A DNA stretch of 64,000 nucleotides from Deefgea salmonis (lineage in GTDB: Bacteria > Pseudomonadota > Gammaproteobacteria > Burkholderiales > Chitinibacteraceae): positions 62,001 through 126,000 of the forward strand of contig NZ_JAJAWG010000006.1 in assembly GCF_020531905.1 (NCBI RefSeq). Direction: 5' to 3'. Below, piece by piece: positions 127 to 5,236 of this stretch (position 1 is the first letter of the stretch; every line of letters begins with the position of its first letter). Under the pieces are notes generated by a model. It did no database searches, was not told the origin of the DNA, and saw only the letters and a list, made by a program, of their open reading frames with translations. Both the position numbers and the translations under genes were made by a program.

Positions 127-1071
127 ATGCCTCACACTCCCCTACCCGATTGGCTCAGCACTCTGGCCATTTACAGCATACTCGTCGGTATTGCTTGCTT
201 TGTATACATCCTGCTCGATCAACGCCAACGCCCCAAACCGATGATGTCAATCATGCTCTGGGTGTGGCCAATTAATGCATTGTGGGCTGGCCCTTTGGCA
301 ATTTGGGCTTACCGACACATTGGCAACGGCAGCAAACCTCGGATTGCCCATACAGTAACAATGCCCGCTCAATCGTCAAAACCGCAAGCAATGAGCGACG
401 AAGGCAAGCCCACAATGATGCACAGCATGTCGATGCAAGACATGCCAATGAAAGACAAGCCCATGAAGGATATGCCCAATATGGACATGTCCAATATGCA
501 GATGCCTACCCCTGCCCCTACTTCAACGCCAAACTCAATGTCGTCCATGCCGGAAATGAAAATGAATATGCCAGCGCATATAAAAATGGATATGAAGATG
601 GATATGCCGATGCAGATGGGCGCAAAAAAACCGTTCTGGCAAAGCATTACCGCCGGCACATTGCATTGTGGCGCTGGTTGTAGCCTGGCCGATTTGATCG
701 GCCCATGGCTGTTTGCTGCCAGCCCCTTTTTGTTATGGGGCAGTCCCGTCTTTGGCGAATGGGCGCTCGATTACCTGCTGGCACTCGCTATTGGTGTTAC
801 CTTCCAGTACGGTGGTTTGCTCGGCATGGTGCCTGAAACCGGCGCTGCGCTCTGGTGGCGGGCACTCAAAGTGGACTCACTGTCTTTAACTTCATGGCAA
901 ATTGGCATGTATGGCTGGATGGCACTAGCTATTTTTGCGTTGATCGGGCCAATGTCGCCCACTGAGCCGATATTTTGGTTCATGATGCAAATCGCCATGG
1001 CCTGCGGCTTTATCACCGCCTACCCGATGAACTGGTTTTTAGTCAAAACCGGCATTAAAACCGCCATGTAA
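127..1071 (+). CDS. DUF4396 membrane protein with a Met/His-rich linker
   Basis: A 314-residue membrane protein. Two hydrophobic segments lie near residues 12-30 and 38-62. A low-complexity stretch from about 75 to 168 follows, packed with Met, Asp, Lys and Pro (repeats such as MKDMPNMDM and KMDMPMQM). The C-terminal part has the HCGAGCSLADLIG motif and several further membrane helices, which is the DUF4396 pattern. Met-rich stretches of this kind bind Cu(I) or Ag(I) in proteins such as CopB/PcoB, so a role in copper handling is possible but inferred. No clear ribosome binding site precedes the ATG, and the upstream gene is outside the window. Frame and family are fairly sure; function is unknown. 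Confidence 0.8.
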   Translation: MPHTPLPDWLSTLAIYSILVGIACFVYILLDQRQRPKPMMSIMLWVWPINALWAGPLAIWAYRHIGNGSKPRIAHTVTMPAQSSKPQAMSDEGKPTMMHSMSMQDMPMKDKPMKDMPNMDMSNMQMPTPAPTSTPNSMSSMPEMKMNMPAHIKMDMKMDMPMQMGAKKPFWQSITAGTLHCGAGCSLADLIGPWLFAASPFLLWGSPVFGEWALDYLLALAIGVTFQYGGLLGMVPETGAALWWRALKVDSLSLTSWQIGMYGWMALAIFALIGPMSPTEPIFWFMMQIAMACGFITAYPMNWFLVKTGIKTAM

Positions 1072-3910: not shown

Positions 3911-3963
3911 TAGGTATATTGATAAACACCTTTAAAATAAAGTCTCTCAAGCCAATACCCTAG
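3911..3963. repeat. Interspersed GGGTAT/ATACCC quasi-palindrome, copy 1
   Basis: The ends TAGGTATA and ATACCCTA are inverted, with an A/T-rich core containing ACCTTTAAAATAAAGTCT. It lies about 130 bases after the small hypothetical gene and 75 bases before the trpS leader peptide. It resembles the copies at 31976 and 56734. Confidence 0.7.
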
Positions 3964-4038
3964 TTGATTCAATCATCACGGCGCAGCAAAAAAGCAAAAC
4001 ACTTGACGGCCTAAAGTCAACACTGTCACTATTGGCGC

Positions 4039-4092
4039 ATGAACTTAAGCAAACACACTCTTTCAGTTTCTTATTACTGGTGGCGCCTCTAG
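4039..4092 (+). CDS. trpS leader peptide with tandem Trp codons
   Basis: A 17-codon frame reads MNLSKHTLSVSYYWWRL and then TAG. Its penultimate part holds two adjacent TGG Trp codons at 4078-4083, and the frame ends just before competing hairpins ahead of trpS. Trp is the rarest residue, so a tandem pair in so short a frame before a Trp-tRNA synthetase gene is the classic mark of ribosome-mediated attenuation. There is no strong ribosome binding site. A TTGACG at 4003-4008 could be a -35 box, but then the transcript would start almost at the ATG. The frame is certain; translation is inferred. Confidence 0.75.
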   Translation: MNLSKHTLSVSYYWWRL

Positions 4093-4154
4093 GCGGCACT
4101 GGGTTTGTTTGTTTCGACACAACCTGCCGCCGGATTACGGTGACAGGTTTTTTT
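4084..4154 (+). promoter_or_regulatory. Transcription attenuator of trpS (antiterminator and terminator hairpins)
   Basis: Three mutually exclusive pairings can be read. A small stem CGCC (4084-4087) with GGCG (4092-4095) overlaps the end of the leader peptide. A long antiterminator pairs GGCGGCA (4092-4098) with TGCCGCC (4125-4131), extended by GGTT (4102-4105) with AACC (4121-4124). A terminator pairs AACCTG (4121-4126) with CAGGTT (4144-4149), followed by a T-run to about 4154. AACCTG is shared by the last two. A ribosome stalled at the two Trp codons should favour the antiterminator and so let trpS be transcribed when charged tRNA-Trp is scarce. Confidence 0.75.
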
Positions 4155-4204
4155 GTTTTCTACCCCTATCCCATCCGGCGGCTCCCGATTTAAGGAGCAG
4201 CAGC

Positions 4205-5236
4205 ATGTCACAACCCTCTACTCATCCGACCTCATCGGCGTCCAGCATCGTGGTCACTGGCGATCGCACCACGGGCCCTTTGCATTTAGGCCATTATGTT
4301 GGCTCATTACAAACACGCCTACGCCTACAAGAAACGCACCAGCCATTTATTTTATTAGCCGATACGCAAGCCTTGGCCGACCATCAAGGCGATTATCGTG
4401 CGGTGCGGCAGTCGGTGATTGATGTGGCACTGGACTACCTTGCCGTCGGCATTGACCCGAAAAAGTCGACCATTTTGATTCAATCGATGGTGCCTGAACT
4501 AGCGGAGCTATCGTTTTACTTGATGAATCTGGTCTCCATTGCTCGCTTAGAGCGCAATCCCACCGTTAAATCCGAGCTCAAAGCCAAAGGGCAAGATCGC
4601 AATGTAGCCGCTGGTTTTTTAAGCTACCCCGTTAGCCAAGCCGCTGACATTACCGCCTTACGCGGCACTTTAATTCCGGTCGGGGCCGATCAATTACCGA
4701 TGATTGAGCAAACCAATGAAATTGTTCGCCGCTTTAACCGGATGGTGGGCGAAGACATTCTCAGTGAATGCAGCGCGCTATTGTCCGACACCAGTCGCTT
4801 ACCCGGTATTGATGGCAAAAAGAAAATGAGCCGTGCGGCGGGCAATCACATCGCCCTCTCTGCCAGTGCCGACAAAATTCATCAAGCCGTCAACAACATG
4901 TACACCGACGCCCAACACCTCACCATCGCTAGCCCCGGGCAAGTTGCAGGAAATGTGGTATTTCGCTTTTTAGATGCATTTGACGTCGATCCACTGCACG
5001 TTGCGCAACTCAAGGCGCAATATCAACATGGCGGCTTAGCCGACCAAGTGATCAAAACGCGCCTCGATGAACAACTACAAGCCTTAATTGCGCCAATACG
5101 TGAGCGCCGTGCGCAATTGGCCAAAGATCCCGATGCCGTTTTGTCACTCTTACTCTGCGGCTCAGCCAAAGCGCGACAAACTGCCGCCCTGACTTTGCAT
5201 AAAGTAAAAACCGCCATGGGGATGTATTATTTTTAA
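4205..5236 (+). CDS. trpS: Tryptophan--tRNA ligase
   Basis: Class I aminoacyl-tRNA synthetase that charges tRNA-Trp. The HIGH-type signature is TGPLHLGHYVGS near the N-terminus and the KMSKS-type loop is KKKMSRAAGNH. The 343-residue length from ATG 4205 matches bacterial TrpRS. I choose this start because AAGGAG lies at 4192-4197; the frame stays open upstream to 4109, but that overlaps the terminator hairpin and does not look like protein. It is a single-gene unit preceded by a Trp leader peptide and attenuator, so its level probably responds to charged tRNA-Trp. Confidence 0.95.
   Translation: MSQPSTHPTSSASSIVVTGDRTTGPLHLGHYVGSLQTRLRLQETHQPFILLADTQALADHQGDYRAVRQSVIDVALDYLAVGIDPKKSTILIQSMVPELAELSFYLMNLVSIARLERNPTVKSELKAKGQDRNVAAGFLSYPVSQAADITALRGTLIPVGADQLPMIEQTNEIVRRFNRMVGEDILSECSALLSDTSRLPGIDGKKKMSRAAGNHIALSASADKIHQAVNNMYTDAQHLTIASPGQVAGNVVFRFLDAFDVDPLHVAQLKAQYQHGGLADQVIKTRLDEQLQALIAPIRERRAQLAKDPDAVLSLLLCGSAKARQTAALTLHKVKTAMGMYYF

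What the first reader, a model, noticed from the sequence alone, without database searches (positions are those of the whole stretch)
4039..4154. trpS controlled by a Trp-rich leader peptide and attenuator
A 17-codon leader with tandem TGG codons is followed by two competing hairpins that share AACCTG; the second is a terminator with a T-run. This is the design of the enterobacterial trp operon, but placed before the Trp-tRNA synthetase gene. In Firmicutes, trpS is often under a T-box; leader-peptide control of trpS in betaproteobacteria is, as far as I know, not a textbook case.
Basis: partly seen in the sequence, partly recalled or inferred. Interest (0 to 1): 0.8.

Follow-up and report, generated by a model that had tools for sequence, protein, structure and literature searches.

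The report
Tryptophan-sensing RNA switch before trpS
A short tryptophan-rich peptide gene and a set of competing RNA hairpins sit in front of a second, spare tryptophanyl-tRNA synthetase gene and most likely switch it on when charged tryptophan tRNA runs short; the design is conserved in relatives and seems to carry an extra RNA arm that reaches the gene's ribosome-binding site.

Summary
In detail: the 17-codon leader MNLSKHTLSVSYYWWRL* (4039-4092), the antiterminator/terminator pair sharing AACCTG and the T-run are there. It is conserved: a strict scan is positive upstream of 31 of 32 family orthologues (window included), 32 of 80 named homologues, 0 of 24 housekeeping-type trpS genes and 0 of 448 shuffles. 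(1) The gene is the genome's second trpS, TrpRS-II-like; the leader tracks with carrying two trpS genes (22 of 28 against 7 of 22). (2) The leader is probably leaderless: a -35-like box lies 34-37 nt before its ATG in 60 of 71 cases. (3) A fifth segment, 4173-4182, pairs with the terminator's 5' arm and loop, and lineages keep the match (p=5e-5). (4) It also matches the trpS ribosome-binding site (p=5e-5). Trp-leader control of auxiliary trpS is known in Streptomyces, so the core is a known kind; the added arm makes it a variant. Against a translational gate: equilibrium folding shows no effect of leader-ribosome position on the binding site, and the effect is weak in the window's own clade.

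The parts
4003..4008 (+). -35-like box TTGACG, 36 nt before the leader ATG
   Evidence: a box with at least 5 of 6 matches to TTGACA lies 34-37 nt before the ATG in 60 of 71 leaders
4024..4032 (+). extended -10-like region TGtCACTAT; weak hexamer (3 of 6); would place transcription start at or next to the leader ATG
   Evidence: position profile over 48 representatives: G or T at -15, G at -14, A at -12/-11, T at -7 and C at -1 enriched; not listed by the stricter scan
4039..4092 (+). leader peptide ORF MNLSKHTLSVSYYWWRL*, probably a leaderless mRNA
   Evidence: third-position excess; SD-like motif before only 2 of 48 leaders
4078..4083 (+). tandem Trp codons TGG TGG (sensor)
4077..4087 (+). 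segment 1, pairs with 4092-4102
   Evidence: 99.3% of cells paired over 15 relatives, too conserved to co-vary
4092..4105 (+). segment 2 (GGCGGCA and GGTT), antiterminator arm
   Evidence: 95.8% of cells paired over 15 relatives; free on Trp stall, hidden at stop in 61 of 64
4121..4135 (+). segment 3 (AACCTGCCGCCGGAT), shared by antiterminator, terminator and segment 5
4138..4154 (+). segment 4 (CGGTGACAGGTT) and T-run: intrinsic terminator with segment 3
4173..4182 (+). segment 5 (ATCCGGCGGC), complementary to terminator 5' arm and loop
   Evidence: -22.2 against -12.4 kcal/mol in 300 shuffles, p=0.003; swap test over 16 lineages p=5e-5
4181..4198 (+). 5:6 hairpin GCTCC(4181-4185):GGAGC(4194-4198) that covers the trpS Shine-Dalgarno sequence
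   Evidence: 95.7% of cells paired over 15 relatives; -13.5 against -7.9 kcal/mol, p=0.010, and swap test over 18 lineages p=5e-5
4205..5236 (+). trpS2, auxiliary tryptophanyl-tRNA synthetase (343 aa)

Best explanation
A ribosome-mediated transcription attenuator controls an auxiliary, TrpRS-II-like tryptophanyl-tRNA synthetase in a Deefgea-like betaproteobacterium. (The confidence given is for this attenuator; the second gate described last is put at about 0.35.) Shown by sequence and comparison: a promoter-like sequence whose spacing puts the start at the leader ATG; a leader with Trp codons just before its stop; segments 1-4 arranged so that a ribosome stalled at Trp leaves segment 2 free for the antiterminator 2:3, while a ribosome at the stop codon covers segment 2 and lets the terminator 3:4 form; a fifth segment whose match to segment 3 and to the trpS ribosome-binding site is kept lineage by lineage. 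Inferred: when Trp-tRNA(Trp) is plentiful most transcripts end at about 4154 as a roughly 116-nt RNA; when it is scarce, polymerase reads through and the enzyme is made. Inferred with less confidence: transcripts that leak through with the terminator hairpin intact keep segment 5 free to close the ribosome-binding site (5:6), whereas in antiterminated transcripts segment 5 displaces segment 2 from segment 3 (3:5) and the site opens.
For: Leader, stems and T-run present. Strict scan: 31 of 32 family orthologues, 5 of 5 loci of a third TrpS-like paralogue, 32 of 80 named homologues, 0 of 24 housekeeping-type trpS genes, 0 of 448 shuffles. Terminator pairs kept with double changes and 3:4 swap test p=5e-5, 16 of 16 lineages. 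Ribosome geometry 61 of 64. Promoter spacing 60 of 71. Association with a second trpS: 22 of 28 two-gene genomes against 7 of 22 single-gene genomes, Fisher p=0.0014; counting leaders by eye without requiring a terminator, 27 of 28 against 9 of 22, p=1.5e-5. Five further Trp leaders before TrpS-like genes found by the covariance model outside its training set, out of six weaker matches read. Segment 5: 3:5 p<0.05 in 39 of 64, swap p=5e-5, and 5 of 5 later loci at p<=0.004; 5:6 swap p=5e-5; withholding segment 5 opens the ribosome-binding site in 14 of 16 lineages, p=4e-4, against a block elsewhere p=8e-4.
Against: No expression data. Ribosome position (stalled or at stop) made no difference to predicted Shine-Dalgarno access at equilibrium (means 0.336 and 0.332, p=0.17; wider site p=0.91; 64 loci), so the second gate needs a kinetic argument. 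In the window's own clade withholding segment 5 barely opens the site (0.49 to 0.53): 3:5 (4173-4182) and the Shine-Dalgarno hairpin (4181-4198) share two bases and are predicted to form together. In one search the site closes by more than 0.05 in 7 of 66 sequences and opens in 42. Single-locus tests are not uniform: 5:6 reaches p<0.05 in 28 of 69, 2:3 in 25 of 64. 2:3 is weaker than 3:4 in swap tests (p=0.012, or 0.0475 when redefined) and on the 34-leader alignment it pairs in 69.7% of cells and is not better than a version slid by three columns on double changes (11 against 18). The swap gain for 3:5 holds in 12 of 16 lineages (Wilcoxon p=0.016). Within the 15 nearest relatives covariation says little. 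One orthologue (L022) has no leader and one (L011) has a single TGG. The five later loci (L135-L139) show no -35-like box at that spacing. The window's -10 hexamer is poor.
Confidence: 0.9

Rival explanations
1. Same attenuator, but segments 1-4 do all the regulation: segment 5 and the Shine-Dalgarno hairpin only tune mRNA stability or basal translation and do not respond to Trp. (Shares the core of the best explanation; differs on segment 5 only.)
For: Predicted access to the ribosome-binding site does not depend on ribosome position; in the window's clade 3:5 and the Shine-Dalgarno hairpin can coexist.
Against: Segment 5 keeps its match to two partners over 16-18 lineages; the two matches use overlapping bases, and withholding segment 5 opens the site in 14 of 16 lineages.
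Confidence: 0.45
2. The terminated leader RNA is itself a trans-acting small RNA, as for rnTrpL of Sinorhizobium; its terminator loop and arm pair with segment 5 of the trpS2 mRNA or with other mRNAs.
For: A leaderless Trp-leader RNA that acts in trans on trpDC is known (PMC7298713, passages); the terminator loop is complementary to a stretch near the ribosome-binding site.
Against: The same pairing is available in cis, which should win; no target search was run.
Confidence: 0.12
3. Chance short ORF upstream of an ordinary terminator that ends transcription from the upstream gene.
For: Short Trp-containing ORFs with a nearby terminator do arise by chance (13 of 448 shuffles and 2 of 24 housekeeping-type genes at the loosest setting).
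Against: 0 of 448 and 0 of 24 at the strict setting; leader and spacing recur in many genera.
Confidence: 0.02
4. A T-box or riboswitch controls the gene rather than a leader peptide.
For: T-boxes control most synthetase genes in Firmicutes (PMC1262725 passage).
Against: No Rfam family at gathering score in the window; at E<=10 only mir-318 and Six3os1_1, far under their gathering scores; the leader ORF is conserved.
Confidence: 0.01

Closest known systems
trpS attenuators of Streptomyces (trpS2 of S. avermitilis, trpL2-trpS of S. lividans; auxiliary gene of Vecchione and Sello 2010, title only)
   Same: Trp leader peptide and attenuator before trpS; S. lividans trpL2 ends in LWRAA, with Trp-Arg near the stop as here (PMC1262725, PMC8079986 passages; title)
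   Different: Other phylum; no uridine stretch after S. lividans trpL2; no segment-5 arm is mentioned in the passages seen; I did not check gene number in those species
Escherichia coli trp operon attenuator (textbook, recalled)
   Same: Tandem Trp codons; 1:2, 2:3 and 3:4 logic; intrinsic terminator
   Different: Controls biosynthesis genes; leader has a Shine-Dalgarno sequence; no fifth segment (all recalled)
Bacillus subtilis tlrB (yxjB) leader
   Same: Leader-peptide stalling governs both a terminator and a structure that hides the ribosome-binding site of read-through transcripts (PMC6851288 passages)
   Different: Senses tylosin by drug-dependent stalling; no overlapping antiterminator was identified there
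Sinorhizobium meliloti trpL / rnTrpL
   Same: RNA starting at the leader ATG; terminated RNA is a small RNA (PMC7298713 passages)
   Different: Controls trpE(G); trans action shown there, not here
Caulobacter crescentus trpS leader CDS
   Same: A putative small leader CDS on the trpS mRNA in a proteobacterium (PMC4117421 passages)
   Different: Mechanism not worked out in the passages seen; alphaproteobacterium
Tryptophanyl-tRNA synthetase II (PDB 1yi8, 2a4m; Deinococcus radiodurans, organism recalled)
   Same: Closest solved relatives of the window's protein, E=1.8e-110 and 1.1e-109
   Different: Its regulation was not examined here

Membership tests
Trp leader-peptide (ribosome-mediated) transcription attenuator | Short ORF with Trp codons close to its stop | tested here: met
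Trp leader-peptide (ribosome-mediated) transcription attenuator | Mutually exclusive antiterminator (2:3) and intrinsic terminator (3:4) | tested here: met
   both present and overlapping; 3:4 kept across lineages; support for 2:3 across lineages is weak
Trp leader-peptide (ribosome-mediated) transcription attenuator | Spacing such that a Trp stall frees segment 2 and a ribosome at the stop hides it | tested here: met
   61 of 64, with an assumed footprint of 13 nt from the A site; no shuffled control was run for this count
Trp leader-peptide (ribosome-mediated) transcription attenuator | Leader is transcribed and translated | not testable with these tools
   promoter and codon-position signals only
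Trp leader-peptide (ribosome-mediated) transcription attenuator | Read-through rises when Trp-tRNA falls | not testable with these tools
   needs reporter or RNA data
Rfam trp-operon leader (existence of the family recalled) | Match to a curated covariance model | tested here: not met
   no match at gathering in the window; at E<=10 in 3950-4260 only mir-318 and Six3os1_1
TrpRS-II (auxiliary tryptophanyl-tRNA synthetase) | Second trpS in the genome, nearest to solved TrpRS II | tested here: met
   33% identity to the other copy
TrpRS-II (auxiliary tryptophanyl-tRNA synthetase) | Indolmycin resistance or nitric-oxide-synthase partnership | not tested
   no call
Leaderless mRNA | Promoter placing +1 at the start codon and no Shine-Dalgarno sequence | tested here: inconclusive
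   spacing in 60 of 71 and SD-like in 2 of 48 fit; start site not measured, window -10 weak, L135-L139 lack the box

The most novel reading that the evidence does not exclude
A six-segment RNA cascade in which one leader peptide controls both transcription and translation: segment 3 chooses between segments 2, 4 and 5, and segment 5 chooses between segment 3 and the ribosome-binding site, so that only transcripts that escaped the terminator through Trp starvation, and not those that leaked through, are translated. It would be a widespread translational check on read-through in amino-acid attenuators.
Probability: 0.35. Interest if true: 0.75.

Novelty: new variant of a known kind. Interest (0 to 1): 0.55.

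Why it matters
It indicates that control of spare tryptophanyl-tRNA synthetases by Trp leader peptides, known from Streptomyces, also occurs in many betaproteobacteria and in a few alpha- and gammaproteobacterial loci, and that it tracks with carrying two trpS genes. That fits the idea that the spare enzyme is an emergency copy raised when the main one is starved or inhibited. The segment-5 arm gives a concrete, testable case of one leader peptide gating both transcription and translation. The leaderless layout means the terminated RNA of about 116 nt can be looked for directly in small-RNA data.

Tried and rejected
Generic Rfam search: no family at gathering and only implausible weak matches. 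Covariation within the 15 nearest relatives: too conserved to inform. Translational switch by ribosome position at equilibrium: not supported. First swap test with automatic grouping lumped 53 of 64 sequences into one of six groups and was uninformative for 3:5 (p=0.44) and 2:3 (p=0.16), while 3:4 passed (p=0.031); I then regrouped by taxon by hand into 16 groups. 5e-5 is the floor of 20,000 permutations. A class-wide search with covariance model R1 (274 genomes, strict filters) gave 9 genomes at E<=0.001, the window's among them; of the 11 other matches I read five (L124-L128) and saw no Trp leader before trpS, and six (L129-L134) were not read. The wider distribution therefore rests on the protein-anchored search, which kept the best 80 of 581 homologues. 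Of six weaker family matches read, five were Trp leaders (L135-L139) and one, L140, an ordinary terminator; the list was capped and the rest were not read. Leader upstream of the own genome's two trpE-like matches: none, but the 300 nt were counted from the match, which for the second starts at model position 85, so that one is inconclusive. Literature: ten searches gave no report of a trpS leader attenuator in betaproteobacteria within this open library; Vitreschak 2004 on proteobacterial attenuators is not held, so a mention there is not excluded. PMC2965389 passages do not name tryptophanyl-tRNA synthetase.

Rows dropped and hand choices: one search read minus-strand loci in the wrong orientation; mended. 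The trpS start of L018 chosen was replaced by hand (1489). Of 71 leaders, 7 were left out of the pairing tests (no terminator called: L056, L078, L081, L120; hairpin weaker than -8 kcal/mol: L049, L097, L122), leaving 64. Alignment A6 and model R1 used 34 of the 71. One search profiled 48 of 71. One search used 64 plus 5 = 69. One search used 66 of 69 (L048 too long; L071 and L112 not placed in a group there). Copy number was taken for 50 of the 80 named loci; weak second matches below cut-off in three genomes (G051, G057, G073) were not counted as trpS. One housekeeping control (L160) was only 159 nt because the contig ends. Leaders counted by eye were not judged blind.

Full report
What is there. 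The leader ORF 4039-4092 reads MNLSKHTLSVSYYWWRL* with TGG TGG at 4078-4083. Downstream, segment 3 (4121-4135) can pair with segment 2 (4092-4105; antiterminator), with segment 4 (4138-4149; terminator, -16.0 kcal/mol, with T at 4148-4154), or with a further segment 5 (4173-4182). The trpS start is ATG 4205 and the gene ends at 5236.

Which gene and which organism. The genome has two trpS genes. The window's copy is 33% identical to the other and its nearest solved relatives are a tryptophanyl-tRNA synthetase (1yi8, E=1.8e-110) and one deposited as tryptophanyl-tRNA synthetase II (2a4m); that both are from Deinococcus radiodurans is recalled. The genus is Deefgea by inference: the named record L043 (Deefgea chitinilytica, contig of 479,905 bases) has the contig length of a G018 contig, and G018 is a genome of the window's own genus.

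Conservation. Orthologues at 59% identity or more occur in 32 of 43 family genomes, the window's included. A strict automatic scan (Trp near the end of a short ATG ORF, a terminator after it, and either a box with at least 5 of 6 matches to TTGACA at 34-37 nt before the ATG, or WW) is positive for 31 of these 32, for 5 of 5 loci of a third TrpS-like paralogue, for 32 of 80 named homologues, for 0 of 24 housekeeping-type trpS upstream regions and for 0 of 448 shuffles; the loosest form passes 13 of 448 shuffles and 2 of 24 housekeeping-type genes. The family exception is L022, without a leader; L011 has one TGG instead of two; Iodobacter leaders have one TGG and a longer tail. Positive named loci include Massilia, Duganella, Janthinobacterium, Chromobacterium, Crenobacter, Caballeronia, Microvirga and bins labelled alpha-, gamma- and deltaproteobacterial. 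The two Paraburkholderia loci have a WW leader but no terminator by my rule. The Acinetobacter, Cupriavidus, Methylophilus and Methylobacillus loci have none. Three of the 80 named loci (L043, L044, L052) appear to repeat family genomes.

Link to gene number. In 50 of the 80 named genomes I counted trpS genes. By the strict scan the leader is present in 22 of 28 two-gene genomes and 7 of 22 single-gene genomes (p=0.0014); counting leaders by eye without requiring a terminator, 27 of 28 and 9 of 22 (p=1.5e-5). Species are related and some genomes are bins of unknown completeness, so these p-values overstate the case.

Leaderless layout. A box with at least 5 of 6 matches to TTGACA lies 34-37 nt before the leader ATG in 60 of 71 leaders; G at -14, A at -12/-11, T at -7 and C at -1 are enriched over 48 representatives; an SD-like motif precedes 2 of 48 leaders but 25 of 48 trpS starts. 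This predicts a transcript that begins at the ATG. The window's own -10 hexamer is weak (3 of 6), and the later loci L135-L139 lack the box.

Is the leader coding? Variable sites fall 35, 33 and 54 on codon positions 1, 2 and 3 (p=0.008), and the synonymous share is 0.40 in frame against 0.26 and 0.29 in the other two frames. This is modest, as expected for a peptide whose only task is to be translated.

Attenuator geometry. With an assumed footprint to 13 nt from the A site, segment 2 pairs with segment 3 at a mean of -15.9 kcal/mol when the ribosome waits at the first Trp codon and -4.3 when it is at the stop; the first is better by more than 2 kcal/mol in 61 of 64. Part of the drop follows from the shorter free stretch, and no shuffled control was run. 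On 34 aligned leaders the terminator shows 44 double-change cells against 16.5 in shuffles (0 of 500 as high) and at most 20 when slid, but the count of pairs with double changes (3 against 2.9) is not above shuffles. The antiterminator, scored in the window's register, pairs in 69.7% of cells there and a slid version has more double changes (18 against 11). A covariance model of the 34 leaders gave 23 matches at E<1e-9 in 43 family genomes, each just upstream of trpS2 or the third paralogue; by my reading of the locus table 17 of the 23 are training sequences. Of six weaker matches that I read, five (L135-L139, in genomes without trpS2) have leaders ending in FWYRSY plus one residue before a gene that resembles the third paralogue (L135 aligned, the others by eye), and one (L140) is an ordinary terminator.

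Segment 5. In the window ATCCGGCGGC pairs with the terminator 5' arm and loop at -22.2 kcal/mol, against -12.4 in shuffles (p=0.003); over 64 relatives 39 reach p<0.05. Lineages keep the pairing with different letters: exchanging segments between 16 lineages weakens it (-18.3 own, -15.6 exchanged, p=5e-5; 12 of 16 lineages gain), as for the terminator itself (p=5e-5, 16 of 16) and more clearly than for 2:3 (p=0.012, 11 of 16). The five later loci, from two genera, all reach p<=0.004.

A second partner. Segment 5 is also complementary to the trpS ribosome-binding site: exchange between 18 lineages changes the mean from -11.7 to -9.3 (p=5e-5), and single-locus p<0.05 holds in 28 of 69. In Massilia and its kin the start region reads either CTCGATG with ATCGAG in segment 5 (L108, L119) or CCCGATG with ATCGGG (L053, L070, L090), a compensatory change; L110 keeps the pair as G-U; of these six only L070 and L108 reach p<0.05 alone. 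In the window the core pairing is GCTCC 4181-4185 with GGAGC 4194-4198.

What segment 5 might do. Predicted access of the ribosome-binding site did not differ between stalled and finished leader ribosomes at equilibrium (p=0.17 for the Shine-Dalgarno sequence, 0.91 for the site). Yet if segment 5 is withheld, as in 3:5, the site opens in 14 of 16 lineages (p=4e-4; against blocking another stretch p=8e-4) and in 42 of 66 sequences by more than 0.05, closing in 7; the change is small in the window's own clade (0.49 to 0.53). Mean duplex strengths are 3:5 -19.5, 3:4 -18.0 and 2:3 -15.9, so segment 5 could displace segment 2 but would meet a fast local hairpin in 3:4. This suggests, but does not show, that leak-through transcripts stay closed and antiterminated ones open. 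Bacillus subtilis tlrB is a tested case of a leader peptide that controls both a terminator and ribosome-binding-site access (PMC6851288 passages).

Place among known systems. Trp attenuators before trpS were predicted in Streptomyces (PMC1262725 passages) and listed from RNA-seq in S. lividans (PMC8079986 passages); the work of Vecchione and Sello on an auxiliary gene was seen only as a cited title; indolmycin-resistant second copies are described in PMC9437257 and PMC6804068 (passages). A small CDS on the Caulobacter trpS mRNA was reported (PMC4117421 passages). A Trp leader RNA that begins at its ATG and acts in trans is known in Sinorhizobium (PMC7298713 passages). So the kind is known; the betaproteobacterial spread and the segment-5 arm were not found in the searches I made, in a library that lacks most subscription journals.

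Noticed in passing
L035, L036, L038, L039, L040 and L135-L139: A TrpRS-like paralogue of about 285-300 aa sits behind the same kind of Trp leader. In the three aligned (L036, L040, L135) the KMSKS region and a central block are missing (and HLGH in L135) while the C-terminal part is kept; it looks like a pseudo-synthetase raised by Trp starvation (Pfam finds nothing in L135).
   Followed up: partly
L088, L105, L117 (Undibacterium): By eye, promoter and terminator are kept upstream of a sole trpS but the leader ORF is absent, as if the sensor had decayed.
   Followed up: no
L022: trpS2 with a promoter-like sequence but no leader or attenuator, in a genome whose third paralogue (L036) still has one.
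   Followed up: no
L025-L029, L031-L034 (Iodobacter genus group): Leaders carry one Trp codon and a longer tail; segment 2 lies inside the coding part, yet the stall geometry is kept.
   Followed up: partly
L128, around position 1500: A GTG-started short ORF with Trp and Tyr codons and a terminator precedes a gene whose protein looks like acetolactate synthase (by recall); not pursued.
   Followed up: no
window 127-1071: ORF with a Met-rich repeat stretch (MSMQDMPMKDKPMKDMPNMDMSNMQMP), possibly metal-binding by look; not searched.
   Followed up: no
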